In this document: positions 1-64,000 of the stretch, piece by piece
Position numbering within the stretch: the first letter of the stretch is position 1
Layout: every line of letters starts with the position of its first letter
Source: Ascidia mentula
Lineage: Eukaryota; Chordata; Ascidiacea; Phlebobranchia; Ascidiidae
Direction: 5' to 3'
Assembly: GCA_947561715.1 (NCBI GenBank)
Contig: OX387205.1
Span: 11,909,001 to 11,973,000, forward strand
Length of the DNA stretch: 64,000 bases
Notes under the pieces: generated by a model
The model's database searches: none
Seen by the model: the letters and a program-made list of their open reading frames with translations, nothing else
Told to the model about the DNA's origin: nothing
Program-made: the position numbers and the translations under genes

Positions 1-3000
1 AAAACATCTACCTACTTGTAATGTGATACTTTCACCACCAGGAATCCGCTCCTCATCAAATGAAACACTATCATATCCAACAACTTCAACCCCGTCTGAC
101 AAAAAACTGGCTTCCAACAGACAAGGCATAGCTGATAAGTTAAAAAATACTACAGTGAAAGCTATTTGGGGTTTGTTGCTGCATAACCTACATTTACAGG
201 TTGTTTGAGGATCAGACCACCCGCCAGCTTCACATACAATGTATTCTGTAGTCGGCCGATAACCTTTACTACAATTTAACTTCATTCTTGCTCCAATTTG
301 TCGATTAGCTGACTCAGAGTCAAGAAAAAGGAAAAAACCGTTGGCAGGATTGTTTACCAACCTGCACTGAAAAACTGCAAACAACAGGCATAAGATTTCA
401 ATCTAAATATCAATGCCTAACATTGTTGTATGATTCCTAAAACATATCATGAAGATTGCTTTGTATTTGCAACTATTTCCCACAGTGACCCAGCTTTACT
501 TTATGTCCATAACAGGTTTTAGGGTGCTTGAATTCAAAATGTTGAACAAGGATATTAACGTACCCTATTATATAATTACTTTACAACCAATTTTACTTAC
601 CATTGCAACTTGGAGCTGCATTAGTCCAACCATCCTCAGTACACAGACTTTCAGGAATGTTGGGTTGATAACCCTCATTGCATTGCACTGTTACTTGTGT
701 TCCAACATCATTTACATACAAATCCTGGCCATTGTACAATAGTCTTCCATTTTCAGGGACAGGTAATTCATTACATCTACTGGCTAAAGGCAAATGAAAT
801 ATGTATTTCTTATAAAATGATGTGGTGGCCACTGTAACCAACAATTATCTAATTAATTGTAGCACACAAATTAAATTTTCATTGATAGAAAAATTTATAA
901 AATATGTGACTATGTTATGTATAAGCTAAAAGTACCACAACATAGTTTATTCAATGTGTTACTTACAAACACATCTTGGTAACTCATCTGACCAGTCTCC
1001 CCTTTCTGTGCATGTGATGACTTTATTCTTGCTGGGAAGATAACCTTCATCACAACTTACAAAAATTGTGGTTCCAAATTCAAATCCCGAAGCTTCCGTT
1101 CCCATGTACTGTATGCTACCATGTTGTGGATTTTGTAATTCTGGACATGTGAGCACTAAATCAAAGAGTTGATGTGGTGAAAATCAATAAAAAAGAATGT
1201 CTTTACATTTGTGAAAACCAATGAAAAATGAAATTTGTAAATATACATACGAAGTCTAGTTTGGTTTTACAAAACTTGCTAATAAGCAGCACCTTGCTCA
1301 CAAAAAGTGCCATAAAATCCAGGAAGGCACTGACATGTGCTGTTTTCATGACATGTAGCACCATTCAAACATGGCAGTGAAGCACAAAAACTTGTACCTG
1401 GAATGATGAGGAAGGATACTCAGTTGGTATGAAATGGTCTATGCTGCAATAATACAACAAATGATAAAGGAGAACTTCAAATTTAACTTACTGCTTTCAC
1501 AGTGTACACCTGTGTAGCGCACAGGGCAGACACAAGAACCTATCGCATTACAATGTCCACCATTCAGACACGGACAGTCTGAAAAGAATGTTCTTAAAAT
1601 GTAACATAAATCTATATTTTGGAAAAGTGTCAACTACAAAAACCTCTTTCACAGAGAATTTTTTTGGGATGTGAGCAGTCTCCATGTCTCCAACACTGCG
1701 TCCTTGTCCAACGGGGCTTTTGAATCCAGCCACACTTGTGAGTAGACATGGATGTGCAATAACCAGAAGACCAAAAAACAACTAGTGAACGCCAGTTTTC
1801 AAATTCATAAACCTTGTTGTCCGACCAGTAACGATTCCATCGATGACGTTTTCGATTATATCTTTGCTCCAACCCAATCCAATAAAAATCTTAAACAAAA
1901 CAATGCGGTTAGTCCTTCTTGGACATTAAAAAAACATGAAACAGACTTTTTTTATTCACCTTGGTCAACTTTATATATAGGCATTTAGATTTTTGTATTA
2001 ACAAAGTTATGTTATCAAAAAAACTATCTTTATACTCAACTTCCCAGTGGAAACTGGTAATCTTGTACAAGTTGGCCTTCATATTTAAAACATGATAACT
2101 ATTGTTAACTTTTGCTGATTCAAATATTATTTTCAAAAATAACTACCAAAAAATGTTTTTTTGAAAAAAAGAAAGTTGGCCTAAAAATGTAAAAAAAAAC
2201 ATAAACACTACCAGATAGTGTGGAGTTCATATTCTTTCCAATGGCTAAAAATACATCTTTTGTTTTTATCATGACCATGCTAGCACCATAACTTTTACAG
2301 TGAACTTTGGCCTGTGGCCGGCTTTTTGTTTCGTCAAAAAACAAATACTCTTTTCCATCATAAAAGAAAGTGGAACTGGGATCTGAAACAACAGACATTT
2401 GGTATCCAATATGTTATTGTAGTCTCTATGAATTGTGAAATAATAAAAACAACACCTGATAATGGACTACATGGTTCATTTTCACAGTGTTTTCTTTCTA
2501 CATTTTTCCCCCTGCACATGACAGTATTGGGAGGTGAATTCGGACATTCCCTTCTCCTTAATTGAAACCCTGAGCCACATGTGGAAGTGCAAGGACCCCA
2601 TAAGCTCCATTCACTCCAACTGTTCCACATTGGTTGCAATGGTGGTTGTGGTATTGGCACAATTTGGTTAGGTTCAGATGGCATTTCTAAATTGACTAAC
2701 AGTAAAGGTGAGTCAGTTTATTTTCTACAAAACATAACATTAAATTGACATAATTTTATAATACAGCAGGTGATGCTGGCAAGAGGTTAAAGGAAGATTA
2801 TTGCATTAATTTCTGGGAGCAAGCATGTAATGTAGAATGCAACACAAAACATTGTGGAAAATGTAAAAAATAATGTTTTCATTTTATGTTCAACAATACA
2901 TGACATAAATCAGAGGGTTCTTGCTTCATAATAGTTAACAATCTATCATGCATAAAGTTAGAACTTAATTACTCCTATGCAATATCTTCACAAGTTGGAG

Positions 3001-4563
3001 TTTTTGCAGACCATTTACCCAAATGACAAAGAACACTTCGGGCACCAACTAATCGCAAGGTATTGTCACATGCAAAAGTTACCATACTTTCACTCCGATG
3101 GGTGATGGAACCACCAGTAGGTGGTGCAAGATGGCTACAAGCTAAAAAAACATTAAGTGTTTTTTTATAGAATTGTGAGGACATAGTAAAATAATTGAAA
3201 CAAAACTAAGCATGTAGCTATTTGTCTTTGTTAAATTTGTCAATTTTGGTGGAAAATACATTACTTCAAGTGCATATGAAAAACCTAAGAATTTTCTAGT
3301 TAGCTTGTAGTATACTGATACTTTCAACACTGATTCATTATTAGTGCACATAAACACTGACTGTGCAGGCTGTACCCATCAATCAGTAAGCAATTGCAGA
3401 GATTTAGAACTGGACAAATAAAAATAACGCAAAAGTAAATTTGATTGCAAGGTCAGAATGTTTCTGTTTATACATTCTAACCATGTAGTCAATGCCAACA
3501 AGCAAATTCTTGTCTTTAAGTTATACTTACGAATTGGATCACAAGAAAGAGGTTGAGGAAACCAAGTTCCTTTAATGGTGCATGTGACATTTCCCTGACC
3601 ATGAAGTCTATATCCATTGTTGCATTCAACTCGAACCACAGTGTTGATAGCATACAGATGTTGGAATGGAACAAGGTGACCATTTCGCACAACAAATTTT
3701 TTACATTTTACTTCTGCAAATCAATAATTATTCCTGAGAATGAAAATTGTGAAATAAATCTGCTAATTCTTGCAAGCACTGAGGCTTTTTTTGTTTTTAA
3801 TCTCTTGTTGTTCTGTATTTTATACACAGATGATGCTGTTCAAAGCGAAATATATTTGTCTTAAATAACAAGCTGACAGATTTTAACCTACTGGAATAAA
3901 TATTTCCATGTTTGTGGTAAATCTGCATGCCATAACCAATACAGTTGCATACTAGCATTTAAATTAAATCAAATCAGAAAAAAAATAACAAACCAATACA
4001 GCTGGGTTGTGAACTTGACCATTTTTCTGTTGGTAAACACTCAGTGTTGTTTGCGCCTTCTAACCGATAACCATGCAAGCATGTGAAAGCAACTGAGGTT
4101 CCCATTGGATGGCCCACACCTGTCTGTAAACTTGGTTGCACTTCACCATTTTCTAAATGCTGTATTGGGGGACATTTCTTAACTGAAAAACAATATTTCT
4201 TTAAAAATTACAGGATAAAAAATTTCTCATGCATTAACTTTTTAGATATTTTGTGATTAGACATCACATCAAATTTTAGACACTGTATGGTGTTGGTTTT
4301 TTCAAAGTCGCAATCCAAATGAACTATTGAGAAAACGACAATAGTAAAATACGTGTTTATCTTAATAGTTGGTTGATAGCAGTTACCATGGCAATTGGCA
4401 GACCCTTCCCAGATGGCATCGCCATTACAAACAGCAAATGAGCTTCCAGTGTTTCGAAATCCCTCGTTGCAGACAAATCGAACACGTGACCCGAAGACGT
4501 AATCTACGCCGCGGTCATCCACTCGGCCATTTGGTGGCGCAATAGGAGTATTGCATCGCCTTA
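1..4563 (-). CDS. Gene A1: CCP/TSP1/C-type lectin/EGF mosaic protein, 3' end outside window
   Basis: Secreted-type modular gene; the 5' end is near 4563 and the 3' part lies left of base 1. Exons in reading order: CCP 4387-4563, CCP 3994-4182, CCP 3531-3713, CCP 2986-3141, TSP1 2456-2686, lectin first half 2212-2382, lectin second half 1644-1889, EGF 1492-1578, EGF 1293-1397, CCP 967-1155, CCP 601-783, CCP 192-374, half-CCP 16-131. Each CCP shows four Cys and the conserved Trp; TSP1 shows WSEWSLWGPC and CGSG. Introns are phase 1 except after the half-CCP (phase 0). Odd: the donor after the 2986-3141 CCP reads GA instead of GT, and reading on gives CEDIA then a stop. No convincing signal peptide exon was found upstream. 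Likely role: extracellular ligand binding. This is inferred from domain content only. Confidence 0.82.
1644..1889 (-). CDS. A1 lectin-domain second exon (variable)
   Basis: Carries WIGL, the two Trp-rich stretches, CTSMS and the terminal LCERG of a C-type lectin fold. After WIGL it reads EQRYNRKRHRWNRYW, and later NWRSLVVFWSSGYC and IQKPRWTRTQCW. These stretches differ sharply from the other copies, whereas the preceding exon 2212-2382 is nearly the same in all. The classical Ca-site motifs EPN/QPD and WND are not visible, so sugar binding of the usual kind is doubtful. Confidence 0.85.
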
Positions 4564-4862
4564 CTTTAAATATATTTTAAAGTGTATAAGGCAACAAAAT
4601 ATATCATTGCAATGTTATAAATAAAGCTTTTATGACATGAAACTAGAAGGTTTGACGAGAACACACCATTAGAAAGCACTACGATTTCGTATCGATATAC
4701 GCTATACCGCATGACCCAAGAAAATGTTGTGTAGCCTTATTACCATTAGCTTTAGGTATACCTCAATATTTGCTGAAAACAAAACGCCTCTTTTAGTTAA
4801 TGATAATTGTGCGAACAAAGAGCACTTTGATCTATATGTGTGTGACGTAATTTGTGACTTAC

Positions 4863-4888
4863 TTAGGTGATGTGATTTACGGCCAATC
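4863..4888 (-). other. Possible 26-nt leader exon of A1
   Basis: A polypyrimidine tract ending TTGCAG precedes 26 nt that end at a perfect GTAAGT donor. The same arrangement is kept in units 2 and 3. It lies about 310 bp after the stop of B1. In the frame that leaves phase 1, as the first CCP needs, the local ATG gives MFLFCCRIGRKSHHL, which is not a good signal peptide. It could be an untranslated exon or a trans-splice acceptor region. Weak support. Confidence 0.3.
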
Positions 4889-5198
4889 CTGCAACAAAAC
4901 AAAAACATTTTTTGTTATGAAAGAGCACAACCTCGGCCATGATTCAATAAAATGCAAATCTCAGTAATTTCTACGCGACATTTCTAGCATTTCTTTTAAC
5001 ACCAAAAATCACAAAAAATGGTGGATTTACTCATTACACATTTTTCCACATTTTTACTGGAAGCTATTTGCATTTGGTAAGTTTTGCTTGTTTTTCCATT
5101 GACAAAACTAATTCAACATATACTTGTTGTCAGGTTAATTGCAGACATAATTCTTTTATCTTCACAACACACAATAAACTAGGAATTGAACAAAGTTT

Positions 5199-8100
5199 TT
5201 ACTTAGAACCGTTAATCGTTTCTTCAATCCAGCTTTGCATCTGCGCAACATCTGCGTAGTAGCCAGGATACACAAAGCCATTTGTTTCATCCCTGAGAGC
5301 ACATTTAATTCCAAAACTGACAATCCCCATTTGTACCCAATAACTTTCGCCAGTTTGGGAATCCACGCGCTGTTGCAAGATTTTGAATAAATAATATATA
5401 TATTTGTATTTAAACTTCATACGTATACCAAAAAGTTTTATTGAGCATTTCAAAGAACCTGAATAAAATAAAGCATTACTTGGTTTATGAGGGGCCCACC
5501 ACTGTCTCCAGTACATGCGTCAGACAGAGTTCTTGCAGTTGTTGGAGATCTGGCACAAATCATGCGGTTCGTGTACCTCAAAGCATGTCCTGTTTTTCGC
5601 GTGTGACGTTGGATTCCTTGACGACACCTGGTCGAAACAGCAATAAAAAGTATCGTCTTTTTCTTGCTTGATGAAGTTATTTTTAACTGTTACCATAATA
5701 ATACTTTAGACGAAATAATCGTTGCCAAACTCTTGGAAAAAGGCCATAAATGTAAAAATGGAATACTTTCATACTTATTGTCTGTTATTACTGGGTACAA
5801 ACATATTTAGCTTTTTTGTATAAAGTCACGAATGGTACTTACACTGCATCTGGTTGTAGTTCTTGCGTGGTTTGCTGCAGAATGTTTGGTATGGTTTGAC
5901 TTTGATAATTAGTGTGTCCAAATCCAGTTACTACGACTGTTGTTCTGTTTTCTCTTTCACCTGTAAAGTGCAACCCTTTTTTACGAAAAAGACATTCCAA
6001 ATTTAAAAAAATGGTAAATGTTAAGTCAAGCTGAGTTAAAAAAGGGGAAATCGCGGTTAGAATTTAACATATTTTACCGCAGGCAGCTGAAGAAAATTGT
6101 TGGACATACTTAGTCCGTTACTGTGTATGATGGTTCTGTTTGGAAGATTACTCCAAGGAAGACACACGGGACGAATGTACGGAGATAAGGGGATTGTTCC
6201 ATTGAATTTCGGCCTTTCTTTTGTGGCGAACCAAGACGATCCATTGCGTAAAAAACGAAGCGAGACTCCGATTCTAATCTGAAAACGGAGGTCCGTTTGG
6301 ATAATCCTGTACGTTTCATAAGAAAAGTACCTTTGGCATACTTCATGTAGAGAATGCAAAAAGCTGTAGGAGATACGTTTACGCGCATCTTATTTCTCTT
6401 TAATCTCAAATCAAAACATTAAATGGGTCAGGTGAATCGTATAATAACCAGATATTTTACTGTACACATTGGTTTACGTCACGCACGAATTTTTTCCAAC
6501 TTTAAAGACGATAATATTGCCTAGAACGTACCCTTCATTGTACTGACATAATGTTTGTCACGGAAAGCAAGAACACAATATTTACAGGATAAGTTTGCAT
6601 CCAATAAACTTTCTTCATAAAGTATGATCAAAGTAAACGAACAAACCCGTTTTAATAAACTCACCAAAGCAACATCGTAATCAAAATTGATTCTCTCACT
6701 CCCACGAGTCTGTCGATCAAATCTTGGATGAAGATATATTTTCCTTGGTGTAAACAGTTCAACTGCAGAGTCCAAATTTTCTATCAAACTGGGGCGTTTA
6801 TGAACACCTGTCAATAATTATCGGTTTAACATCAAAGTTATGTAACGATGTAGGAACTATCAGAGGAATGCCCCCACAGCACGTGTCACTGGCATGTTTT
6901 TTTTTATATTAAGGTCATAATTTTCTTAAACAAACATAATTAAACTAAATGAGTAGAAGATCTTTAAATGCGCAACTGTAATTGTAAAGAGGAATTATTT
7001 TTGAAGACTTCAAAGGCAAACTGGCCCCTCACTTGGTACAAGATGTAACAAAAACTATTGCATAGTTCATCCTATTACAGTAAAAAGACAACGGGATAAC
7101 CAAATTGCACAGCGCTCGTCAACACCATGCGCTGTGCAATTTAATCTCTTGTGATGGCGGATGTAATAAACGTCAATGGCGAAATATCGGCGAAGTTGGC
7201 GGCACACAACGTTCAGCAAGGAGCAACGCAACTCTCGCAGTGTAACAATCGGAGGTTTCCTGTTGGTGGATATTGCTTACGGCGTTGTTATAAGCTGACT
7301 CCCGACACTTGGAGAATATGTTGTTGCAAAATAAAAAGAAATCTCAACCGAAATCTGAGGATTTAATTTAAATCACCTGGCGGTCTTTTTGAAAAATAAA
7401 AGTTGCATCAACATGATTTATTGCATGCTTTTGCATGCAAATTGACGACCACAATTAAAACTGTTCCCAAAGAAAGTTGAATAAACGATATTTATTCTTA
7501 CTTAGCTGAATAAAAGTACGGTGTTAACTAACCTACGGCGAGAACCAAATTTTCGATATGTTTGATGTCTTCATATTTGTCAAACACGTGAGCTGCTGTG
7601 AGAATCCACTGCTGGTTAATAAGCGATCCGCCACCCATTATATTGAGATCATGGAACAACTACAAATACAAAAATCAAATCTAGGTAATATATTGTTGAT
7701 AATAAATTTCAGTTGTCTTTTGTATAGTTGTCTTTGACGCAATGTGCTTAATAAGCAGTAACTGTTTCCGGAGATAAAGTTCGAGACATTTCATGTAGCA
7801 CAATGACAAAGAACTGAAAAGTAACTTACTTGTGTGGAAAAGCTTGTCATGATGAGCACCTGCCATGGCCAAGTGTGTTGTTTTACTGATATTCCTCCGA
7901 CTACTCGCCCGAAACCGAGCTCATGTACGATTGTGTTGATAACATTTGATTGGCCACAAATCTTTAGATCTGTTAGAATTACGTTTAATAAGGAAAACAA
8001 CACTAAAGTTATTAAAAAACAATGGAAACATGTTATGTTTGCTTTATTCAAAATTACTACCGTATAACTTTTACGTTCGAATCCTTTTGCCAAACCATCC

Positions 8101-9642
8101 ACATTTAGGTTAAAATTGATTTTGTTGTCACGTTACCTGTACAATTTACATCAGCTCGTGTCCATTTTTTTCTTGAATTGCAGAAAACCTGGGGACCAAT
8201 AGGTGTCATTCCCGGAGGGCACGCATATTCAACGAAGTCACCGTGTCTAAAGTTTGAATTCACTTGAACCAAGCCACGGTCAACGAAACGCACCACACTG
8301 TAACCCACACTGCCTCTAGCCGATGGTAGCGAATTCCCACAGGTGGCATCTTAACAATAATTAACAAATGACATTACTTGAACAGAAACTATCAAAATTG
8401 ACTTTTAATTTGATATTTCCATCGGGGCGTTATTAAAATGTTGGTTGGTGTAATGGTTCTCAATCCTTTTTATAAACTTTTTCTCTCTAGATAAACATTC
8501 GTCATTCTCACTTGGATTAAAGCAGGACATCCCACAATGACCGTCACAAGCACATCGTTTCCTTCCTTTACACTCCCTGTTATACACACAAGCTTTTCGG
8601 CATGGATAACCCGCCAAACTCTCGTTTCTTCCGGGACATGAACCTATAACATATTTTTCCTATAGTTGCGCTAGATGACATAAACACTAAAGGCACTCCA
8701 GTTTTGTTTATTACAGAGGCGTATATCCAGGATGATCACATCAAATAAAACTTTGGGGCAATGTGCTTGAGATATCCTATAATTCGGGCCTAAAACATAA
8801 TTGTGTTCCGGAAAAAAAGAAGGATATTCTTCAGGTGTAAAATATTCTTCGCATGCGAGACATTATCATAACTTAGTTAGACTTTCGAAGTAAAGTGTAA
8901 CACTCAGAACAAGGACAAAAACGCCCCCAGCTGTTGTATTGGAATTTTCAGCAATATGCTCGTGATTTCCCACAAACTTGAAGAGCATACACTTATTTTT
9001 CGAAATGAAAAACTTAACTTAATAATTTACTTTGATATGAGTTATTTATCTTTAAAATTAAACTTTATACCGCATCTAGCAAAGACATATGATTCATCCT
9101 CGTTGTTGCTGCAATCTCCAACGCCATCACACACTTTGTCGAGGCTTAAACAAAGATCACTGTTTGGACATCGAAACTTGTTGTTAGAACACGGCCCTGT
9201 TGCGCTGCTACCTGCTGACAATAGGGATATTGAAAATTTTAATTATACCCTGTCTTCAATTTGCCAAGTGGTCAGCGTAACATTAAAGTAATAATTTAGT
9301 ATCGCTGCACTCGGTTTCAATGAATAGTTCATTGCTGGTATTTGTGTGATGAAAGAAACAAAATTATTTCTCCCAAAACCTCTACTTGATCCAAGTACAG
9401 GCTCTTATGGCATAAAGCACTTTAGGCTGTGTAGCCAGTTTTTGTTTAAATCACTTAATGTTCAAGGAGATAAACTAAACCAATATCCGTTTTGACTTCA
9501 AAGTTAAACATCTTGCTATCGTCGCGATAATTCAGGCTATAATCAATTCGTGTAAACGGAAAATCAAAAGTTGGTTTATCTGTGGTTACTTACGGCTGAA
9601 AAGTGACTTTAACAGCAAGACAACCCATATCCAAGTCTTCAT
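5199..9642 (-). CDS. Gene B1: LDLa-WAP-CCP-trypsin serine protease
   Basis: Eleven exons sum to 1554 nt (517 residues): 9594-9642, 9071-9214, 8512-8643, 8137-8349, 7830-7969, 7533-7659, 6665-6807, 6110-6278, 5843-5960, 5480-5627, 5199-5369. Exon 1 is a signal peptide (MKTWIWVVLLLKSLFS). Then come LDLa (six Cys, DGVGDC, NEDE), a WAP-like domain with eight Cys but CAC in place of CC, a CCP, and a trypsin domain. Activation site is R|VVGG. Catalytic His is in LTAAHV, Asp in DYDVAL, Ser in GDSGGP. Asp six residues before the Ser, and Gly at the 216/226 equivalents, predict cleavage after Arg/Lys. Both histidine-loop Cys (42 and 58 equivalents) are absent (GGGSL, AAHV) and the Ser codon is AGT, as in C1r/C1s/MASP-2 type enzymes, but here the domain is split over seven exons. 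All splice phases match, with no break seen. Substrate unknown. Confidence 0.92.
7102..7142. repeat. Stem-loop in intron of B1
   Basis: AAATTGCACAGCG at 7102-7114 pairs perfectly with CGCTGTGCAATTT at 7130-7142 across a 15-nt loop. It sits in the intron between the exons carrying the catalytic His and Asp. Near-identical copies occur near 28943-28983 and 50126-50166, the latter with mismatches. Role unknown; possibly the end of an old transposon. Confidence 0.6.
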
Positions 9643-26084: not shown

Positions 26085-26204
26085 TGTGAAAATTGCAATC
26101 TAAAGTGGTGCTGTCGCGTATTTGTAATTGCGTGATATTATCACTGTGACACTAATCTTCACATTAAATATTTTTTTATTGAGACATCTATTTTTAGAAC
26201 TTAA

Positions 26205-26689: not shown

Positions 26690-26715
26690 TTCGGTGATGT
26701 GATTTACGGCCAATC
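26690..26715 (-). other. Possible 26-nt leader exon of A2
   Basis: Same acceptor (TTGCAG) and GTAAGT donor as 4863-4888, about 335 bp after the B2 stop. Phase 1 exit would match the first CCP exon at 26059. Coding status unclear. Confidence 0.3.
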
Positions 26716-47489: not shown

Positions 47490-47888
47490 TCGTTGCAGAC
47501 AAATCGAACACGTGACCCGAAGACGTAATCTACGCCGCGGTCATCCACTCGGCCATTTGGTGGCGCAATAGGAGTATTGCATCGCCTTACTTTAAATACA
47601 TTTTAAAGTGTATAAGGCAACAAAATATATCATTGCAATGTCAAAAATACAGCTTTTATAACATGAAACTAGAAGGTTTGACGAGAACACACCATTAGAA
47701 AGCACTACGATTTCGTATCGATATACGCTATACCGCATGACCCAAGAAAATGTTGTGTAGCCTTATTACCATTAGCTTTAGGTATACCCCAATATTTGCT
47801 GAAAACAAAACGCCTCTTTTAGTTAATGATAATTGTGCGAACAAAGAGCACTTTTATCTATATGTGTGTGACGTAATTTGTGACTTAC

Positions 47889-47914
47889 TTCGGTGATGTG
47901 ATTTACGGCTAATC
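47889..47914 (-). other. Possible 26-nt leader exon of A3 block
   Basis: Third copy of the TTGCAG acceptor, 26 nt, GTAAGT donor arrangement, 310 bp beyond the B3 stop, as in unit 1. Confidence 0.3.
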
Positions 47915-48224
47915 CTGCAACAAAACAAAAACATTTTTTGTTATGAAAGAGCACAACCTCGGCCATGATTCAATAACATGCAAATCTCAGTAATTTCTCC
48001 GCGACATTTCTAGCATTTCTTTTAACACCAAAAATCACAAAAAATGGTGGATTTACTCATTACACATTTTTCCACATTTTTCCAGGAAGCTATTTGCATT
48101 TGGTAAGTTTTGCTTGTTTTTCCATTGATAAAACTAATTGAACATATACTTGTTGTCAGGTTAATTGCAGACATAATTCTTTTCTCTTCACAACACACAA
48201 CAAACTAGGAATTGAACAAAGTTT

Positions 48225-51200
48225 TTACTTAGAACCGTTAATCGTTTCTTCAATCCAGCTTTGCATCTGCGCAACATCTGCGTAGTAGCCAGGATACACA
48301 AAGCCATCTCTTTCATCCCTAAGAGCACATTCAATTCCAAAACTGACAATCCCCATTTGTACCCAATAACTTTCGCCAGTTTGGGAATCCAAGCGCTGTT
48401 GCAAGATTTTGAATAAATAATATATACATTTGTATTTAAACTTCATACGTATACCAAAAAGTTTTATTGAGCATTTCAAAGAACCTGAATAAAATAAAGC
48501 ATTACTTGGTTTATGAGGGGCCCACCACTGTCTCCAGTACATGTGTCAGACAGATTTCTTGCAGTTGTTGGTGATCTGGCACAAATCATGCGGTTCGTGT
48601 ACCTCAAAGCATGTCCTGATTTTCGCCGTTGGATTCCTTGACGACACCTGATCAAAACAGCAATAAAAAGTATCGTCTTTTTCTTGCTTGATGAAGTTAT
48701 TTTTAACTGTTACCACAATAATACTTTAGACGAACTAATCGTTACCAAACTCTTGGAAAAAGGCCATAAATGTAAAAATGGAATACTTTCATACTTATTG
48801 TCTGTTATTACTGGGTACAAACATATTTAGCTTTTTTGTATAAAGTCACGAATGGTACTTACACTGCATCTGGTTGTAGTTCTTGCGTGGTTTGCTGCAG
48901 AATGTTTGGTATGGTTTGACTTTGATAATTAGTGTGTCCAAATCCAGTTACTACGACTGTTGTTCTGTTTTCTCTTTCACCTGTAAAGTGCAACCCTTTT
49001 TTACGAAAAAGACATTCTAAATTTAAAAAATGGTAAATGTTAAGTCAAGCTGAGTTAAAAAAGGGGAAAGCGCGGTTAGAATTTAACATATTTTACCGCA
49101 GGCAGCTGAAGAAAATTGTTGGACATACTTAGTCCGTTACTGTGTATGATGGTTCTGTTTGGAAGAAACGAATTACTCCAAGGAAGACACACGGGACGAA
49201 TGTACGGAGATAAGGGGATTGTTCCATTGAATTTCGGCCTTTCTTTTGTGGCGAACCAAGACGATCCATTACGTAAAAAACGAAGCGAGACTCCGATTCT
49301 AATCTGAAAACGGAGGTCCGTTTGGATAATCCTGTACGTTTCATAAGAAAAGTACCTTTGGCATACTTCATGTAGAGAATGCAAAAAGCTGTAGGAGATA
49401 CGTTTACGCGCATCTTATTTCTCTTTAATCTCAAATCAAAACATTAAATGGGTCAGGTGAATCGTATAATAACCAGATATTTTACTGTACACATTGGTTT
49501 ACGTCACGCACGAATTTTTTCCAACTTTAAAGACGATAATATTGCCTAGAACGTACCCTTCATTGTACTGACATAATGTTTGTCACGGAAAGCAAGAACA
49601 CAATATTTACAGGATAAGTTTACATCCAATAAACTTTCTTCATAAAGTATGATCAAAGTAAACGAACAAACCCGTTTCAATAAACTCACCAAAGCAACAT
49701 CGTAATCAAAATTGATTCTCTGCCTCCCACGAGTCTGTCGATCAAATCTTGGATGAAGATATATTTTCCTTGGTGTAAACAGTTCAACTGCAGAGTCCAA
49801 ATTTTTTATCAAACTGGGGCGTTCATGAACACCTGTCAATAATTATCGGTTTAACATCAAATTTATGTAACGATGTAGGACCTATCAGAGGAATGCCCCC
49901 ACAGCACGTGTCACTGGCATGTTTTTTTTTATATTAAGGTCATAATTTTCTTGAACAAACATAATTAAACTAAATAAGTAGAAGATCTTTAAATGCGCAA
50001 CTGTATTTGTAAAGAGGAATTATTTTTGAAGACTTCAAAGGCAAACTGGCCCTCACTTGGTACAAGATGTACCAAAAACTATTGCACAGTTCATCCTATA
50101 ACAGTAAAAAGACAACGGGGTAACCAAATTGCACGGCGCTCTCGACACCATGCGCTGTGCAATTTAATCTCTTGTGATGGCGGATGTAATAAACGTCAAT
50201 GGCGAAATATCGGCGAAGTTGGCGGCACACAACGTTCAGCAAGGAGCAACGCAACTCTCGCAGTGTAACAATCGGAGGTTTCCTGTTGGTGGATATTGCT
50301 TACGGCGTTGTTATAAGCTGACTCCCGACACTTGGAGAATATGTTGTTGCAAAATAAAAAGAAATCTCAACCGAAATCTGAGGATTTAATTTAAATCACC
50401 TGGCGGTCTTTTTGAAAAATAAAAGTTGCATCAACATGATTTATTGCATGCTTTTGCATGCACATTGACGACCACAATTAAAACTGTTCCCAAAGAAAGT
50501 TGAATAAACGATATTTATTCTTACTTAGCTGAATAAAAGTACGGTGTTAACTAACCTACGGCGAGAACCAAATTTTCGATATGTTTGATGTCTTCATATT
50601 TGTCAAACACGTGAGCTGCTGTGAGAATCCACTGCTGGTTAATAAGCGATCCGCCACCCATTATATTGTGATCATCGAACAACTACAAATACAAAAATCA
50701 AATCTAGGTAATATATTGTTGATAATAAATTTCAGTTGTCTTTTGTATAGTTGTCTTTGACGCAATGTGCTTAATAAGCAGTAACTGTTTCCGGAGATAA
50801 AGTTCGAGACATTTCATGTAGCACAATGACAAAGAACTGAAAAGTAACTTACTTGTGTGGAAAAGCTTGTCATGATGAGCACCTGCCATGGCCAAGTGTG
50901 TTGTTTTACCGATTTACCTCCGACTACTCGCCCGAAACCGCGCTCATGTACGATTGTGTTGATAACATTTGATTGGCCACAAATCTTTAGATCTGTTAGA
51001 ATTACGTTTAATAAGGAAAACAACACTAAAGTTATTAAAAAACAATGGAAACATGTTATGTTTGCTTTATTCAAAATTACTACCGTATAACTTTTACGTT
51101 CGAATCCTTTTGCCAAACCATCCACATTTAGGTTAAAATTGATTTTGTTGTCACGTTACCTGTACAATTTACATCAGCTCGTGTCCATTGTTTTCTTGAA

Positions 51201-52675
51201 TTGCAGAAAACCTGGGGACCAATAGGTGTCATTCCCGGAGGGCACGCATATTCAACGAAGTCACCGTGTCTAAAGTTTGAATTCACTTGAACCAAGCCAC
51301 GGTCAACGAAACGCACCACACTGTAACCCACACTGCCTCTAGCCGGTGGTGGCGAATTCCCACAGGTGGCATCTTAACAATAATTAACAAATGACATTAC
51401 TTGAACAGAAACTATCAAAATTGACTTTTAATTTGATATTTCCATCGGGGCGTTATTAAAATGTTGGTTGGTGTAATGGTTCTCAGCGCCTTTTTATAAA
51501 CTTTTTCTCTCTAGATAAACATTCGTCATTCTCACGTGGATTAAAGCAGGACATCCCACAATGACCGTCACAAGCACATCGTTTCCTTCCTCTACACTGC
51601 CAGTTATGCACACAAGGTTTTCGGCATGGATAACCCGCCAAACTCTCGTTTCTTCCGGGACATGAACCTATAACATATTTTTTCCTATATTTGCGCTAGT
51701 TGACATAAACACTGAACGCACTCCAGTTTTGTTTATTGCAGGGGCGTATATTCAGGATGATCACATCAAATAAAACTTTTGGGCAATGTGCTTGACATAT
51801 CCTATAATTCTGGCCTAAAACATAATTGTAATCCAGAAAAAAAAACAATGATTTTCTTTGGGTGTAAAATATTCTTTGCATGTGAGACATTGACTTTATG
51901 ATAACTTAATTAGACTTTCGAAGCAAAGTGTAACACACAGCACCAGCACTAAAGACGCCCCCAGCTGTTGTATTGGAATTTTCAGCAATATGCTCGTAAT
52001 TCCCACAAACTTGAAGAGCATACACTTATTTTCCGAAATGAAAAACTTAACTTAATAATTTACTTTGATATGAGTTATTTTATCTTCAAAATTAAACTTT
52101 ATACCGCATCTGGCAAAGACATATGATTCATCCTCGTTGTTGCTGCAATCTCCAACGCCATCACACACTTTGTCGACGCTTAAACAAAGATCACTGTTTG
52201 GACATCGAAACTTGTTGTTAGAACACGGCCCTGTTGCGCTGCTACCTGCTGACAATAGGGATATTGAAAATTTTAATTATACCCTGTCTTCAATTTGCCA
52301 AGTGGTCAGCGTAACATTAAAGTAATAATTTAGTATCGCTGCACTCGGTTTCAATGAATAGTTCATTGCTGGTATTTGTGTGATGAAAGAAACAAAATTA
52401 TTTCCCCCAAACCTCTACTTGATCCAAGTACAGGCTCTTATGGCATAAAGCACTTTATGCTGTGTAGCCAGTTTTTGTTTAAATCACTTAATGTTCAAGG
52501 AGATAAACTAAACCAATATCCGTTTTGACTTCAAAGTTAAACATCTTGCTATCGTCGCGATAATTCAGGCTATAATCAATTCGTGTAAACGGAAAATCAA
52601 AAGTTGGTTTATCTGTGGTTACTTACGGCTGAAAAGTGACTTTAACAGCAAGACAACCCATATCCAAGTCTTCAT
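48225..52675 (-). CDS. Gene B3: LDLa-WAP-CCP-trypsin serine protease
   Basis: Eleven exons summing to 1554 nt: 52627-52675, 52105-52248, 51536-51667, 51160-51372, 50853-50992, 50556-50682, 49690-49832, 49129-49303, 48863-48980, 48506-48647, 48225-48395. Compared with B1 it has a two-residue insertion (WSNSFLPNR for WSNLPNR) and a compensating two-residue deletion (GIQRRKSGHA for GIQRHTRKTGHA), both in frame. Triad, activation site and Arg/Lys pocket residues are intact, and the histidine-loop Cys are absent. The three B copies differ little, in contrast to the lectin exon of the neighbouring A genes. Confidence 0.92.
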
Positions 52676-56236: not shown

Positions 56237-59200
56237 TCACTTGGGAATGTCAGTTGAATCAACTGGTGGGGATTCTTGACACGATGTTGCATTAAGAGCT
56301 GTATCCCAAAAACCTCCCAACCTACAAAACCGGTCCGGCTTACCAACAAGAGCCAAATCTTCATTGATGCACTAAATAACACCGTACAATAGTGTTAAGG
56401 GGGGAGTAAATATCTTTTTGATGTATAATATTTAAGTACAGGACATTATGTTCAGTTTTGCAGATGGGACAAGCATACCTTCAGATTAATAGACGATCCC
56501 GGGTGAAACCTCTGATTGCCTAAATCGGCTTTAGAATACTTGAAAACGCCAACATCATCAGAAAGATCTTGTGGGTGTATTTTGCATTGTATTGCTGCAA
56601 CAAAAGTTATGAGAATCACTCAAAATTTGAGTGGGAAATTTGTCGTAATAAAACCCACATCTCAAGCCGTATATTAAACTGTTACTTACGTTCACATGTG
56701 GGTATCTCACGGTTCCACGCAGCTGGGTTCCCCTCGCAAACTATTTCCCCATCATAACTTGCTACATATCCTGTATTACACTCAACAACCACCCTTGTAC
56801 CAATTCTCGTACATGCATTCCCGGATCTACACACAATTTGGCGGTTTGTTGTGTTCGTCAATCGGTTGCAGTGAGCCGGACATGAGGTGGTGTTAAAAGG
56901 CAAGTCCCATATGCCACCTATTGTGCAGGTTCGGGTTGAATCGCCAGAGAGTTCTGCTTCACGGTCTTTGCACTTTAAACAACAAAAGTTGAAATTTTTA
57001 ACACGTCGCTGATGAAGTGGTTCGCAAATAATGCCTTGGTTTAATGTTGTTAGTGCATCAAAAGAATTTTTATTTCAATAATCAGTGCGTAGCCTTTCAG
57101 CTGTTGCACTGATATGATATTAGGTAAGCGGACGCTAAAAACAACGGTCGACTTTCCACTAAAGAAGGTCAACAATTGCGTCGTTATGACATTTTGTTGG
57201 GTATAAGTGCGCTACCAGGTAAAGAAAGTTAAAAACCACATTCTTAATGCCATAAAATGTTAACGTTGCTATTTATTTTAGATTTAATCCACTAGAATTG
57301 CGCTAGACCCGTCATCGGTTCGTGTGACTCCGGTGGCTGTATTATTTTAAATGCCGTTAAAATTGCGGATTAAAAACCTTCGTCGAAGCCAAGAAAGTCA
57401 ATGTGTCGCTTTTTGTTCTTGCTTTTTACTGTCTCATTCATTGTCACTGTGACCAACCCACTTAGTGAGTGGGTTTACTGATATGCCAGCTGGTTAGGGT
57501 TTGTGTTTCAATGAGCTGACAGTGGAAAAGTCCCTCCTGAAGGACGCATATTGGTATTTCTATGAAAATTAGTTTTGGTGCTGGGAAATGCCCAACCTGT
57601 GTCACAATGCAAAGTCATGCATCACCAAGCAAAGCAGTGACGCAATTAAGTTAAATTTGCGGTTGAATGAGCGCACATGTGCGTGCTGTTGTCATGGCGA
57701 ATTTTAGGGTGTTTGGGGCAGTTTTAGTGGGGTTTTGAGCTATTCCAATTAGGTAGTAACTTGCTGGTGGGTGCTGCTGAAATTTATGTTGAAAATGGAG
57801 CAAAAAAATCAGGCTGTGTTTGTGGCAAAATGAATCGTTTGAGTGTCCAATCATTTGTGATTTTATGAAAGATCCATTTCATATCTACAAATTTTGATCA
57901 AAATTAGTCTCCAAAAAAATGGTTTAGCCACCCCCCTAGGGCCATTTGCCCCCCTGGCTACTCAATATTTTGGTTAAAAGAGCAACCAAAAATGGAACTG
58001 GATTTTGCAGAAAAATGAATCGTTCAACTACCCACTCATTTGCATTTTTTGTAAGTTCCAACTCTTCTCTATGCGATGGCATCAAATTTAGTTGCTGAAA
58101 AAGTGTCAAAGCCCCCCCCCCCCCATGGGCTGGGTATACCCCCCTGTTGGTCATATGATCTTCCAGGAGGCCCAAAAAGTCCTTGCTCTGTACAGTCTCA
58201 TCCAGGAGCAAATTTTTTTTTTCAACTTTGTAGAATTTTAGGTCCCTATGTAAGTCACAAGACCCATCAACGGTCATTGGGAAACAAGCGGAACAGTCGC
58301 TATATGCATTACAGCCGAGGGCCTTGAACACAGGATTTCTCCAATCTAATACCCATATAGGTCCTTAAGGCTTATTGTTGCGCAACACACGTAAACAGGT
58401 TGCGCGCTTGTCGTCGGTAGAACGAACTAATAGTGAAGTCAAGAGACATCTGTAGGCCTATACTATTTGGCTTGCATAGGGCGAGAAGTCCAACTTTAAG
58501 TAAAAGATAAAAATACTTTACTTGTTAACATGAGGGTCGGTGCACTGTTTAACGAGAAATCACCGCCATATATCTTAGCGTTAAAACCAATCCTACCTGA
58601 TTTAATGCAATCAACGACGATTTCGGCTACCTGTGCCTTTTGAAGTATATGAAATATCACACTAGTATGTCGGTAACGAAGAAGACCATTAATAATTTGA
58701 AGTGTTAAATTATCACCTTTAGGTGAATTTGAGCGCCGGGAGGAAACGATTGACCGTTTTCGGACACGTTCACACCATCTGGAAGATCATCAGGTTGAAT
58801 CGTGCAAGGAATCACTGAAATTAGATTCAAGAGATGTTGGTTTGCAAAATTGATGTATGTGAAGCTCACTAATTAAAATTCTTGTTGCCAATGATTACAA
58901 AGCATGACTTAAGTCTTACACAGAAAAAATAAGCTAAGAATGCAAAAAAATACAATGTTTTTTTTACGCAATCCATTATTCAAGAGACACCTTGGGTTGT
59001 GCAACATATTGAAATCAGCATTTCGCTCAATAAAAAAAATCGTTTATATTTTGCAATTATCCAGATTATGCGCTTATATTTCGAAAATGATCTGTTATGC
59101 GGTTTGGGATTTACCATTCCACTTGCAATTAAACAGATATATATGGGTAAACAGATTTATAGTCGTGTGTGGCCGATAACAGCATGACGTCACCACCCGT

Positions 59201-62200
59201 ACGTGCCTTATTTGTGACGTCAGTCAGGGCAGCTCCATATAATAATGGAGCTACACCAACTGCGTCATTCAAACTGATAGTGGCACAAGTTCTTGCCGAA
59301 ACGTTTATCGTATGAAACATGACAATGTTGACAACAGTAAGGGCCAGTTTCTTTATTGTCAGAATTATGAGCAAATCCGTAAATCTTGTTACTAAACAGA
59401 TTTTGTTTCCACACTGAATTTGGTTTTTCCATTGATCAATTCGAAATATACTGAATTAGCCCTTTGTACCCTACCATGTGAAAATAAAGAAAGACGATAT
59501 GTTGAGATTACGTGTGTAAATACAAAGCAAGCAATGCAGCTATTGTTTAGAGATGGTATGTGCGTAGTCATACCAACATTATCAAGTTCTGTTACAATAA
59601 AACCAACAAATAAATATTCTGCGTGATAAAAGCCTCAATTTCCAAGTTACCGTCACATGTCGGCAATTCCCGCTCCCATTCACCGCTGTCTAAACAGGCG
59701 GCCTTTCTCCTTCCAAGTAACTTGAAACCATTAGCACAACTAAATCGGAACAGGCGACGACTTGGATGAGAGATTCGCTCAGAACGAAGATGGGGAGATT
59801 GGATATTACAGTTGCCTGCGTTAAACACTGTAGGTTAAAACTAAACGCAGAAGACTTCCACCTTTACCTGGCAACTTTAGATCAAACACATAAACCAAAC
59901 AACATCAGATTAGGTTGGTTTTTGTTTGTCCAAAAGTGCCGTGTCATGGTTTTTAAATTACATGTATGGGTCATTATTTTGTGAATAAAGAATTGGTTTG
60001 TTCTGCGTTGGGAGACCATGTAGTGACAAGATATCGATTTTATTACCAACGTCTTCGAGAGGATATCCAGTAGATTTAGGAATTGACTGAGTGGTGGCAA
60101 CCGTGCTTGTAGTTGTTGGTAAAATTTCTAAAAATAAGTTTCACCATTAGGAGATTCTCATTGCAAGATGAAAGTCACTTTATGTATATATGTATACATA
60201 AAACGTGGTAAATGGAATGTAAGGTTGCACACTTTTGGCAACCAAGATATCCAGTTAGGCTAAACTTTATCACCATATTTGTAGCATATTATTCAAACTC
60301 GCCCGGTCGCGTATAATATGATTTTTGTGTAGGAAGTAACTAGAAATCGCAAATAAACGCATATTGTAGTGTGAGTGTGACCTTCTCTATTTTGTTTAAT
60401 TATTATTTTTTATCATACTGGGATTAAAACCAGGATGTCCTGGGCACGAATCCTGATCTTGGTTTTCTTCTAGGTATATGGGTCGGACGTTGACCGAAGT
60501 TGCTAATCGCTTTTTTAACCACACCAAGAATAAAGCTACGCCTACTAGTGAAAATCAACCACAGAAAACCATTCTCACCAGAGGGACGTTCGACGCACTC
60601 ATACGAAGTATAATCGGAAGTCCACAACATTCCTGGCAAACAGGTTATTGTAGGGGGTTGACCCTCGGCAAGTTGAAGAGAGGGGTTTTTACACTAAAGT
60701 TGAAATAACAAAAAAATGTCGTTCAGCTAACATAACTTTAAAGCCTAGTTTTCAGATCAAAGAGGCTGCAAATTAACCAAAAATACTCCTGATGTCTTGT
60801 ATTACAACTGGGTTCAACAACCAAAAAATAAATGAATGAATTACTCGCAGTTCAATGGATTTTCCAACTTTCCTAAGTTTTTCGTCATCAGTTTTCAATT
60901 CTACTCCAACTACGTCTACATCGGGTGGTAAATCGTTGTAATAAAACACACAGGGTCGCCCTAAAAACGAAAGTGTTTGTTATCGTTATACATCGCAGAA
61001 GAAATACATTTCCAGCAACATAAATAATATAGGGTGCATGTTCGTAAGAGCACTCCAGTACATAAACTTAAATACATGGGAATTAAAGTTATTCCATTTA
61101 GAGAGCAACAAAAACTTCCTTGCAGGCGTATAAGTGTTTAAATATCAAAGGAAAGGTAGGATTTAAAGGCTTAAAATTCCTAATCTTTTTTTTATATTTT
61201 TATACCTCCGCTGTGTCATTTACACCTGTCAACTTTCAAATACATTTCTACTGACAAATCACAAAAATACCTTGACATGATGGAATTTCATGTGACCACC
61301 CATCTGTGCAATGTATTTCATTGTATGCAGGTGTTTCGTACCCTGGCGCACAGATCACCCGCACCCTTGATCCATATTTCCACCTATCTGTGCTGTTTTC
61401 ATGATAATCCAGGAATTCCAAGCGACCATTGCATGGTGTTTCAAGTTGAGGGCAAGGGGCATGGCATGAAGCATTATTGGGGTGGACATCCCACCATCCT
61501 TCAGGCCCATCACAATGATATTTCCTCACGCCTATAAGGTCTTTTTCTGGATCAGAACACTGCATCAAATTGTGTTTTGGAGTTGATTTTAATAAACAAT
61601 TTTTTCTCAAACCTGTGGAATTATTTTGCGAAACCCTCTGTATTGACAAAAACTGTGATTCAACTAATTAAAGACAATAACCTTTTTTATTATCATACAA
61701 GGGAAATATTTTCAATATTGTTAAAAACATCTACCTACTTGTAATGTGATACTTTCACCACCAAAAATCCACTCCTCATCTAGTGAAACATTATCATATC
61801 CAACAACTTCAACCCCGTCTGACAAAAAAGTGGCTTCCAACACGCAAGGCGTAACTGATAAGTAAAAAACACTACAGTGAAAGTTCTTTAGGGTTTGTTG
61901 CCTAATAACCTACGTTTACAGGTTGTTTGAGGATCAGACCACCCGCCTGCTTTACATTCAATGTATTCTGTAGTCGGTTTATAACCTTTACTGCAATTTA
62001 ACTTCAATCGTGCTCCAATTTGTCGATTAGCTGACTCAGAGTCATGAAAAAGGAAAACACCGTTGGCAGGATTGTTTACCAACCTGCACTGAAAAACTGC
62101 AAACAATGGGCATTAGATTTCAATCTAAATATCAATGCCTAACATTGTTGTATGATTCCTAATTAAGATATCATGAAGATTGCTTTGTATTTGCAACTAT

Positions 62201-64000
62201 TTTCCGCAGTGACCAAGACTTACTTTATGTCAATAACAAGTTTTAGGGTGCTTGAATTCAAAATGTTCAATAAGGATATTAACCTACCTTATTATATAAT
62301 TACTTTACAACCAATTTTACTTACCATTGCAACTTGGAGCTACATTGGTCCAACCATCCTCAGTACACAGACTTTCAGGAATGTTGGGTTGATAACCCTC
62401 ATTGCATTGCACTGTTACTTGTGTTCCAACATCATTTACATACACATCCCGGCCGTTATACAATAGTCTTCCATTTTCAGGGTCAGGTAATTCATTACAT
62501 CTACTGGCTAAAGGCAAATGAAATAGGTATTTCTTACAAAATGACGTGGTGGCCACTGTAGCCAACAATGATCTAATTAATTGTAGCACACAAATTAAAG
62601 CATTTGCATTAACAGAAAAATTCATAAAATATAATTATGTCTATGTTATGTATAAGCTAAAAGTACCACAACATAGTTTATTCAATGTGTTACTTACAAA
62701 CACATCTTGGTAACTCATCTGACCAGTCCCCCCATTCTGTACATGTGATGACTTTATTCATGCTGGGAAGATAACCTTCATCACAACTTACAAAAATTGT
62801 GGTTCCAAATTCAAAGCCCAAAGCTTCCGTTTCCATGTACTGTATGCTACCATTTGGTGGATTTTGTAATTCTGGACATGTGAGCACTAAATGAAAGAGT
62901 CAATGTGGTGAAAATCAATAAAAAAAAAGTCTTTACATTTGTGAAAACCAATGAAAAATAAAATTTGTAAATGTACATACAAAGTCAAGTTTGGTTTTAT
63001 AAAACTTGCTAATAAAGCAGCACCTTGCTCACAAAAAGTGCCATAAAATCCAGGAAGGCACTGACATGGACTGTTTTCATGACATGTAGCTCCATTCAAA
63101 CATGGCAGTGAAGCACAAAAACTTGTACCTGAAATGATAAGAATGGAAATTCACATGGTATAAAAATTGTGTTTCATGCTGCAATAGTATAACAACGAAA
63201 TTTAACTTACTACTTTCACAGTGTACACCTGTGTAGCCCGCAGGGCAGACACAAGAACCTATCGCATTACAATGTCCACCATTCAGACACGGACAGTCTG
63301 AAAAACATTTTACAAACAAGTAATAAAAATCTAACATGTTGGAAAAGTGTTAATTGAGGAAACCTCTTTCACAGAGAACTTTTTCACGATTTAAGCAACC
63401 TTCATTTCTCCAACATTGCACCGTCATCGAATTGCGCTCTGGCAGATTTTGAATCGAGCCACACTTGCGAGTAGACATAGAGGTGCAAATACCGTAAGAA
63501 CGAACAACCTTTGAATGCCACTTTAAATATTCATAAACACTGTTGTCCGACCAGTAACGTTTCCATTTCTGAGTGTGCTGATTATATATTAACTTCAACC
63601 CAATCCAATAAAAATCTTAAACAAAACAATGAGCCTTTAAAAAATCTGTATTCACAACCAAAACATCAATAATTTTTGTACAGGAATTCAGATTTTTGTG
63701 ATAACAAAAATAGTTCATCAAAAAACTTTGTGTATATTTAACTTCTATCTGGAAACTTGTACAAGTAAGCCTTTTTTCATATTTTAATCATTGATGACTA
63801 TTGCTGATTCAAATATTATTTTTAAATAACTACCAAAAAATGTTTTTCAAAAAACAAAATAGCCTAAAAATTTTAACAAAAGACATAAACACTTAACCGT
63901 ATAGTGTGGAGTCCATATGCTTTCCAATAGCTAAAAACACATCTTTTGTTTTTATCATAACCATGCTAGCACCATAACTTTTACAGTGAACTTTGGCCTG
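56237..64000 (-). CDS. Gene A4: CCP/lectin/EGF mosaic protein, 5' end outside window
   Basis: Visible exons in reading order: lectin first half from 63898 past 64000, lectin second half 63364-63615, EGF 63211-63297, EGF 63024-63128, CCPs 62698-62886, 62325-62507, 61914-62096, split CCPs 61739-61854 with 61271-61559, 60845-60960 with 60579-60693, linker 60047-60127, CCP 59651-59815, split CCPs 58717-58814 with 56690-56972, 56479-56594 with 56237-56371 (TGA at 56237-56239). Module order equals A3 with no module lost. One exon has one extra codon (HCDGPEG for HCGPEG). The donor after the first lectin exon reads GTTAAG. The intron 56973-58716 carries an 823-bp transposon. Function as for A3, inferred. 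Confidence 0.85.
57542..58364. mobile_element. TTAA-site MITE in an A4 intron
   Basis: An 823-bp insertion absent from units 2 and 3. Ends GGACGCATATTGGTATT and, in reverse, GGACCTATATGGGTATT form 17-bp inverted repeats. The flanks are TGAA (57538-57541) and TTAA (58365-58368), where unit 2 has a single TTAA, so the target was TTAA with one later change. This target is typical of piggyBac-type elements. Two inner stretches around GAATCGTT (near 57830 and 58017) look repeated. The open frame across it shows no known protein. Confidence 0.75.
63364..63615 (-). CDS. A4 lectin exon (variable)
   Basis: After WIGL it reads KLIYNQHTQKWKRYW, then KWHSKVVRSYGIC and SIQNLPERNSMTVQCW, ending LCERG. Length changes occur in two stretches relative to A1 and A3. 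The EGF exons beside it are nearly identical to theirs. Confidence 0.85.

What the first reader, a model, noticed from the sequence alone, without database searches (positions are those of the whole stretch)
1644..63615. Hypervariable second lectin exon in otherwise near-identical genes
Five copies (1644-1889, 19165-19410, 22578-22829, 42024-42269, 63364-63615) differ at many residues and in length, clustered in three stretches: just after WIGL, around the CTSMS Cys, and between GWIQ and the last Cys pair. The adjoining exon (first half of the same domain), EGFs, CCPs and even introns are almost invariant. Such a focus of replacement changes in the long-loop part of a C-type lectin fold is what diversifying selection or conversion on a recognition surface would leave. 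An undescribed self/non-self or pathogen recognition family is possible.
Basis: partly seen in the sequence, partly recalled or inferred. Interest (0 to 1): 0.88.

Follow-up and report, generated by a model that had tools for sequence, protein, structure and literature searches.

The report
Fast-evolving lectin exon in tunicate proteases
In a sea squirt, a row of near-identical genes for predicted secreted protein-cutting enzymes carries one lectin segment that has been pushed to change quickly while much of the DNA further out is kept alike, the pattern expected of a part that binds changing targets such as microbes or other individuals; what it binds has not been tested.

Summary
The five exons are at the stated places; the genome shows ten copies, all in one 147-kb array in a tunicate (probably Ascidia mentula chromosome 9). 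Second-exon dN is 0.179 against 0.037 in 11 neighbouring exons pooled, dN/dS 1.25 against 0.54 (bootstrap P 0.0006). Site models put about a third of codons at omega near 5 (2dlnL 34.8); 0 of 257 null simulations, half of them with recombination, reached the real value. Seven of eight neighbouring exons tested lack the signal; CCP7 has it at about 4% of sites. Trees of adjacent segments reject each other, so flanks are converted while this exon stays diverse. Correction: three of five introns measured, including both that touch the exon, are also raised. The lectin sits in a predicted secreted mosaic: signal peptide, LDLa, CCP, trypsin (triad intact in 6 of 7 protease-bearing genes), CCPs, TSP1, lectin, EGFs, CCPs. 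Best reading: a recognition lectin fused to a trypsin-like zymogen, selected to bind varied non-self surfaces; gamete recognition is the main rival. Ligand, expression, polymorphism and surface placement are untested; the structure prediction failed.

The parts
1644..1889 (-). hypervariable second lectin exon, gene C cassette 1
   Evidence: open frame, splice sites, Lectin_C match of the joined domain
19165..19410 (-). hypervariable second lectin exon, gene B cassette 2
22578..22829 (-). hypervariable second lectin exon, gene B cassette 1; lacks the KC/QC Cys pair and has an RC..RC pair in the first variable stretch
42024..42269 (-). hypervariable second lectin exon, gene A
63364..63615 (-). 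hypervariable second lectin exon, gene Z; most divergent copy
2213..2383 (-). conserved first lectin exon, gene C
19746..19916 (-). conserved first lectin exon, gene B cassette 2
23153..23323 (-). conserved first lectin exon, gene B cassette 1
42599..42766 (-). conserved first lectin exon, gene A (tblastn bounds)
13237..31606 (-). gene B, wholly in the window: signal-peptide exon 31559-31606, LDLa, 8-Cys WAP-like module, CCP, trypsin (27054-29843), CCP1-4, two TSP1-lectin-EGF-EGF-CCP cassettes, C-terminal CCPs, stop
   Evidence: phase-consistent 41-exon open chain of 2293 aa, some splice sites weak; signal peptide and stop; Pfam on parts of it
35731..52675 (-). gene A: same architecture, one lectin cassette, CCP2-4 block duplicated, CCP1 exon interrupted by an insert; no full chain was built
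1..9642 (-). gene C, 5' part (signal peptide 9595-9642, LDLa, trypsin about 5205-7967, CCPs, first lectin cassette); continues left of the window into a second cassette
56237..64000 (-). gene Z, 3' part inside the window; no signal-peptide or trypsin exon on this strand in the fetched sequence upstream
4863..4888 (-). predicted 26-nt micro-exon between trypsin and CCP1 (gene C; counterparts 26690-26715 gene B, 47889-47914 gene A)
   Evidence: present after trypsin in 7 of 7 protease-bearing lectin genes; frame checked by hand
1890..2212 (-). intron between the two lectin exons, gene C; divergence raised

Best explanation
The window lies in a tandem array of eight tunicate genes (six with all exons of the protease) for predicted secreted mosaic serine proteases. 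The second half of their C-type lectin-like domain is under diversifying selection, while gene conversion and duplication homogenise sequence further out. Predicted working: the lectin half, which lacks the recalled calcium/sugar motifs, binds varied surface ligands, most likely microbial or other non-self. Binding clusters the protein and lets the LDLa-CCP-trypsin zymogen (R|VVGG activation site, trypsin-type specificity Asp) be cut, which starts a local proteolytic response. Different genes, and two cassettes in two of the genes, give a set of lectin variants on a constant protease. Shown: selection, conversion, open frames, domain content, triad. Inferred: single transcript, secretion, ligand class, activation.
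For: Ten copies, none with an internal stop. dN about five-fold that of pooled neighbours, omega 1.25 vs 0.54. M2a over M1a 2dlnL 34.8, omega 5.2 at 33% of codons; three blocks with own trees p 0.0015, 0.0004, 0.009; seven copies of intact genes p 0.0002; 0 of 129 and 0 of 128 null simulations reach the observed value, highest 22.1. Seven of eight neighbour exons tested n.s.. AU tests: each of four adjacent segments rejects the trees of the other three; copies at 19165 and 42024 differ at 0 of 147 sites in intron+EGF1 but 35 of 246 in the exon (Fisher 4e-8). No internal stop in 211 exon matches of 75% identity or more in the minus-strand array (weaker matches not counted). Catalytic His, Asp and Ser in 6 of 7 protease-bearing genes, RVVGG in the same six. 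Signal-peptide exon in the 6 of 6 genes that keep the 5' half; micro-exon after trypsin in 7 of 7. Pfam Sushi, Trypsin, TSP_1, Ldl_recept_a, EGF and Lectin_C above cut-off. [quoted passage not shown] LDLa repeats, CCP and S1A protease are listed among the domains of insect cascade proteins, and proModSP autoactivates with recognition proteins and peptidoglycan (PMC10732536, passages; that this layout is ModSP's is partly recalled).
Against: Average dN does not significantly exceed dS (P 0.166). dS and three nearby introns are also raised, so part of the contrast is homogenised flanks. CCP7 also shows a signal (p 0.0004), and CCP3 and CCP4 have pairwise omega 1.6, not significant, on very low divergence. 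No transcript, ligand or polymorphism evidence. The trypsin end could be a stop (TAA) instead of a donor, and the CCP1 acceptor is weak. Gene A has an insert in CCP1 and genes D and Z lack the 5' half, yet keep open lectins. A protease in front of the recognition modules is an unusual order.
Confidence: 0.5

Rival explanations
1. Gamete recognition: the variable lectin is a sperm or egg-coat protease-lectin whose binding loops coevolve with the partner, as for the F-type lectin bindins of oysters, in which recombination in an intron in the middle of each lectin domain adds diversity.
For: Positive selection at binding-pocket sites plus recombination in a mid-domain intron is the oyster bindin pattern (PMC5712786, passages). 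An ascidian sperm protein with a serine protease domain, HrTTSP-1, binds an egg-coat protein (PMC9265791, passages). Same sequence evidence as the best explanation.
Against: No expression data either way. LDLa-CCP-trypsin-TSP1-CCP is more usual in immune and clotting-type proteins (general knowledge). A within-genome array of differing copies fits a repertoire better than a one-to-one partner.
Confidence: 0.2
2. Homogenisation only: conversion keeps flanks alike, while a lowered conversion rate lets this exon drift under relaxed constraint.
For: dS in the exon (0.142) and the touching introns (0.125, 0.108) are raised to similar values; strong conversion signal; average dN not significantly above dS.
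Against: Omega class of about 5 against a nearly neutral null, not reached by 257 simulations; invariant WIGL, W, D, N, C and CTSM positions beside variable ones; ten of ten frames open.
Confidence: 0.13
3. Two gene families side by side: a trypsin gene that stops at TAA and a separate CCP-TSP1-lectin-EGF-CCP gene. The lectin is then a soluble recognition protein without its own protease.
For: In-frame TAA at the trypsin end of 7 of 7 lectin-linked copies; two of four plus-strand relatives end in TGA close to this point. The CCP1 acceptor has little pyrimidine tract.
Against: A 26-nt micro-exon with good splice signals lies between trypsin and the next module in 7 of 7 genes, and by hand check restores frame in the six that have CCP1. 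A phase-consistent 2293-aa chain also exists without it. No signal-peptide-like start was noticed before CCP1, but I looked only by eye at the listed frames of gene C.
Confidence: 0.13
4. Targeted mutagenesis of the exon, such as a retroelement with adenine bias or a deaminase.
For: Variation is focused on one exon half of a lectin fold, the fold used by diversity-generating retroelements (recalled).
Against: Adenine occurs in 66% of variable columns in the exon and 68% in the adjacent intron; transition and transversion counts are alike (69:89 and 71:100). No template repeat or reverse transcriptase was searched for.
Confidence: 0.02

Closest known systems
Oyster sperm bindin (tandem F-type lectin domains, Crassostrea gigas)
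   Same: Positive selection at binding-pocket sites, recombination in a mid-domain intron, tandem lectin cassettes (PMC5712786, passages)
   Different: F-type lectin fold, small number of single-copy polymorphic genes, no protease
ModSP / HP14 initiator proteases of insects
   Same: LDLa and CCP in front of an S1A protease (PMC10732536, passages; assignment partly recalled)
   Different: Several LDLa repeats, protease at the C terminus, no lectin domain (recalled)
Horseshoe crab Factor C (recalled)
   Same: CCPs, EGF, C-type lectin and trypsin-like protease in one protein
   Different: Has LCCL, protease C-terminal, not a diversified array (all recalled; the search returned no paper)
MASP with C-type lectin in the ascidian lectin pathway
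   Same: Lectin recognition coupled to a serine protease (PMC5465252, passage)
   Different: Separate proteins; MASP has CUB domains (recalled), none matched here in the parts scanned
fester of Botryllus
   Same: Tunicate locus with a subset of codons at omega above 1 (PMC3549757, abstract)
   Different: Colonial allorecognition locus; selection shown with population data
CiCD94-1 of Ciona
   Same: Ascidian C-type lectin domain reported as lacking carbohydrate-binding capability (PMC5465252, passage)
   Different: Described with CD94, a type II membrane receptor, not a protease mosaic

Membership tests
C-type lectin-like domain (PF00059) | Profile match over the curated cut-off | tested here: met
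   3 of 3 spliced domains scanned on their own (of ten copies): 27.6, 32.9 and 28.3 bits against 22.6. The domain with the RC..RC pair, scanned inside the 1029-aa part, gave no Lectin_C row at E <= 1
C-type lectin-like domain (PF00059) | WIGL motif and conserved Cys | tested here: met
   WIGL and the Cys of CTSM, of the column-76 Cys and of LCE kept in 10 of 10; an extra KC..QC pair in 9 of 10
Calcium-dependent sugar-binding C-type lectin | EPN or QPD plus WND motifs (recalled) | tested here: not met
   None present in the ten exon sequences (read directly)
S1A trypsin-like protease | His-Asp-Ser triad and specificity Asp | tested here: met
   TAAH, DYDxAL and GDSGGP in 6 of 7 protease-bearing lectin genes, specificity position Asp; gene D lacks the His exon
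ModSP/HP14 | LDLa - CCP - protease order | tested here: met
   One LDLa, then CCP, then trypsin
ModSP/HP14 | Protease is the C-terminal domain (recalled) | tested here: not met
   CCP, TSP1, lectin and EGF follow in the predicted gene; void if trypsin ends at TAA
Factor C | LCCL domain and C-terminal protease (recalled) | tested here: not met
   No LCCL match at E <= 1 in the parts scanned; protease precedes the lectin
MASP | CUB domains (recalled) | tested here: not met
   No CUB match at E <= 1 in the parts scanned
Diversity-generating retroelement target | Adenine-biased variable sites (recalled) | tested here: not met
Polymorphic allorecognition gene | High allelic diversity and segregation with compatibility | not testable with these tools
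   Only one haplotype was at hand

The most novel reading that the evidence does not exclude
An invertebrate chordate carries a germ-line repertoire of protease-coupled recognition lectins. A constant zymogen body is combined with selected lectin half-domains that are kept apart while flanks are converted, and cassettes may be swapped between genes or chosen by splicing, so each animal displays a different set.
Probability: 0.25. Interest if true: 0.85.

Novelty: new variant of a known kind. Interest (0 to 1): 0.62.

Why it matters
[quoted passage not shown] A compact array with a selected binding exon, probably fused to a catalytic domain, gives a directly testable candidate: the variable codons are listed, and an RNA-seq set and an alternate haplotype assembly exist for the probable species (PMC11109543). 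The adjacent segments with conflicting trees also make a good case for measuring how conversion and selection act against each other.

Tried and rejected
Adenine-biased mutagenesis was rejected on base spectra. A pure recombination artefact of the site test was rejected by block trees and simulations; the simulations used only three blocks, so finer recombination is not covered. Decay of broken gene copies as the only cause was rejected by the restricted test. Structure prediction of the half-domain gave mean pLDDT 39.7 and pTM 0.27 and was not used. Placement by alignment to solved lectins is ambiguous after the CTSM Cys: LY75 and C-type mannose receptor 2 suggest two registers. The 8-Cys module after LDLa looks WAP-like by eye, but Pfam gave no such match at E <= 1. 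A phmmer of the protease at 1e-20 gave nothing; at 1e-12 it gave 116 sequences, the 60 shown being thrombin/prothrombin and plasma kallikrein. The divergence profile is not usable outside TSP1-EGF1, where copies are not colinear. Gene chains: in the first run all three (A, B, C) failed; with looser splice thresholds B succeeded and C failed at its last exon; A was not tried again. The 18S search failed twice.
Full report
What the window is. The window is G000:C73:11909001-11973000 of a 195.8-Mb genome in 79 contigs. Its mitochondrial COX1 (C79) carries AGA/AGG at the glycines of MIGGFGNWL, which fits the ascidian mitochondrial code, so the host is a tunicate (that these glycines are invariant in animals is recalled). 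The Ascidia mentula genome note (PMC11109543, first of three parts read) gives 197.0 Mb, nine chromosomes, chromosome 1 of 27.92 Mb and chromosome 9 of 15.45 Mb. C73 is 15,447,500 bases and C1 has matches up to 27.6 Mb, which fits.

The observation. Three genome searches, one by DNA and two by the two lectin exons as proteins, each found ten copies, all on C73 between 11,826,292 and 11,973,069. I fetched 150 kb of flanking sequence and mapped 26 domain queries by tblastn. Below, 'reg' positions are window positions plus 100,000. The ten lectins belong to eight genes on one strand: B and C carry two lectin cassettes, six carry one. Genes D and Z lack the 5' half. Gene A has an 850-base insert in its CCP1 exon.

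Gene architecture. For gene B a phase-consistent chain of 41 exons gives 2293 open residues; several of its splice sites score low. It runs LDLa, an 8-Cys module, CCP, trypsin, four CCPs, TSP1, lectin (two exons), two EGFs, CCPs, a second TSP1-lectin-EGF-EGF-CCP cassette and C-terminal CCPs. Pfam supports Sushi, Trypsin, TSP_1, Ldl_recept_a, EGF and Lectin_C over their cut-offs in the six sequences scanned. Lectin_C came from three of three domains scanned alone; the first-cassette domain of gene B, scanned inside the 1029-aa part, gave no Lectin_C row. A signal-peptide exon (MKTWI[WL]VVLLLKSLFS, then CGTAAGT) precedes LDLa in the six genes that keep the 5' half. The trypsin end reads AAGTAA, which can be a stop or a donor. 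A 26-nt micro-exon with a strong acceptor and donor follows trypsin in 7 of 7 protease-bearing lectin genes. By hand check it joins trypsin and CCP1 in frame in the six genes where CCP1 was found (gene G has no CCP1 match). I therefore favour one gene. His, Asp and Ser motifs (TAAH, DYDxAL, GDSGGP) are present in 6 of 7, and RVVGG in the same six; gene D lacks the His and activation exons. The histidine-loop Cys are absent (GGG..TAAHV), as I recall for some complement proteases. Trypsin exons give omega 0.69 and the LDLa, 8-Cys and first CCP exons 0.74, on low dS of 0.039 and 0.026.

Divergence. NG86 over all pairs gives, for the second lectin exon (10 copies, 86 columns), dN 0.179 and dS 0.142. 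The first lectin exon gives 0.029 and 0.069. The 11 neighbouring exons pooled (8 to 10 copies each, 652 codons) give 0.037 and 0.069. Codon bootstrap: omega of the exon at or below that of pooled neighbours P 0.0006; against the first lectin exon alone P 0.052; dN at or below dS inside the exon P 0.166. CCP3 and CCP4 have point omegas of 1.6, not significant, on dS near 0.02. In 33 of 45 pairs of the exon pN exceeds pS.

Site models. I wrote a small codon likelihood program (F3x4, FastTree topology). M2a beats M1a by 2dlnL 34.8 (p 2.8e-8), and M8 beats M8a by 34.8; M2a puts 33% of codons at omega 5.2, and 18 sites have posterior above 0.8. Three blocks with their own trees give p 0.0015, 0.0004 and 0.009; without the most divergent copy p 5e-9. 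Eight of the 11 neighbour exons were tested: seven give p 0.17 or more, CCP7 gives p 0.0004 with 4% of sites. The seven copies of the five apparently intact genes give p 0.0002, the window's five p 0.0002. Simulation under M1a: 0 of 129 without recombination and 0 of 128 with three block trees reached the real value of 35.2; maxima 9.9 and 22.1. The test is liberal with recombination: 14 of 128 exceed 5.99, against 6 of 129 without.

Conversion. In the colinear stretch, diversity is 0.004-0.08 over TSP1 and the first lectin exon, rises through the lectin intron to 0.195, is 0.10-0.24 in the second exon and 0.04-0.11 in the next intron and EGF1; it rises again in the EGF1-EGF2 intron. Trees of TSP1+first exon, lectin intron, second exon, and intron+EGF1 reject each other in 12 of 12 AU comparisons. 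Copies at window 19165 and 42024 differ at 0 of 147 sites in intron+EGF1 and at 35 of 246 in the exon. The copies at reg 78648 and window 42024 differ at 6 of 326 sites in the lectin intron and at 35 of 243 in the exon.

Where the changes fall. Invariant positions are YWIGL, the W and DN of the W.DN motif, VY, W, VV, G, CTSM, T, K, G, I, Q, W, C, K and LCE; variable ones lie between them. By alignment to LY75 the stretches correspond to the loop after WIGL, the end of the long loop before the CTSM Cys, and an insertion before the last W (strand assignment recalled). The copy at 22578 loses both Cys of the KC..QC pair. It and the copy at reg 78648 share an RC..RC pair in the first variable stretch. 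This suggests exchangeable loop disulfides, which is inference. No EPN, QPD or WND motif is present, so calcium-dependent sugar binding is not expected. The one fold prediction run failed, so 'one face' is untested.

Reading. A selected lectin half-domain on a conserved trypsin body fits a recognition unit coupled to a zymogen. The nearest parts in the literature are insect ModSP (autoactivation on recognition) and oyster bindin (selected lectin sites, recombination in a mid-domain intron). Ciona blood cells hold serine proteases activated by LPS. Immune recognition is my first choice and gamete recognition the main rival; nothing here separates them. Seven searches of the held library listed 1, 1, 20 of 30, 2, 15 of 25, 0 and 0 papers, and none of those listed describes this family by title or abstract start. 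That covers open-licence papers only.

Check of this report. I added the missing Lectin_C row, the CCP3 and CCP4 omegas and the limits of the micro-exon check.

Noticed in passing
window 46639-47488: 850-base insert inside the CCP1 exon of gene A whose ends are inverted-repeat-like, looking like a short transposon.
   Followed up: partly
C73 about 11980209-12022719 (loci L029-L033), plus strand: Related LDLa, CCP and trypsin exons in the opposite orientation; the two lectin exons were not found there. One has AAS in place of the catalytic AAH.
   Followed up: partly
G000:C1 about 22.4-27.6 Mb: By my count about 105 of the 150 scored Lectin_C matches (of 770 candidates) lie in this stretch of another chromosome, a much larger lectin cluster.
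   Followed up: no
CCP7 exons, e.g. window 193-369 and 17782-17964: A second, weaker signal of positive selection (about 4% of codons, p 0.0004).
   Followed up: no
window 19165-19410 and L028 (C73:11906590-11906832): Lectin exons of the second cassettes of genes B and C differ at 1 of 246 sites, a recent copy or conversion between genes.
   Followed up: partly
window 43110-46348: CCP2-CCP3-CCP4 block present twice in tandem within gene A.
   Followed up: no
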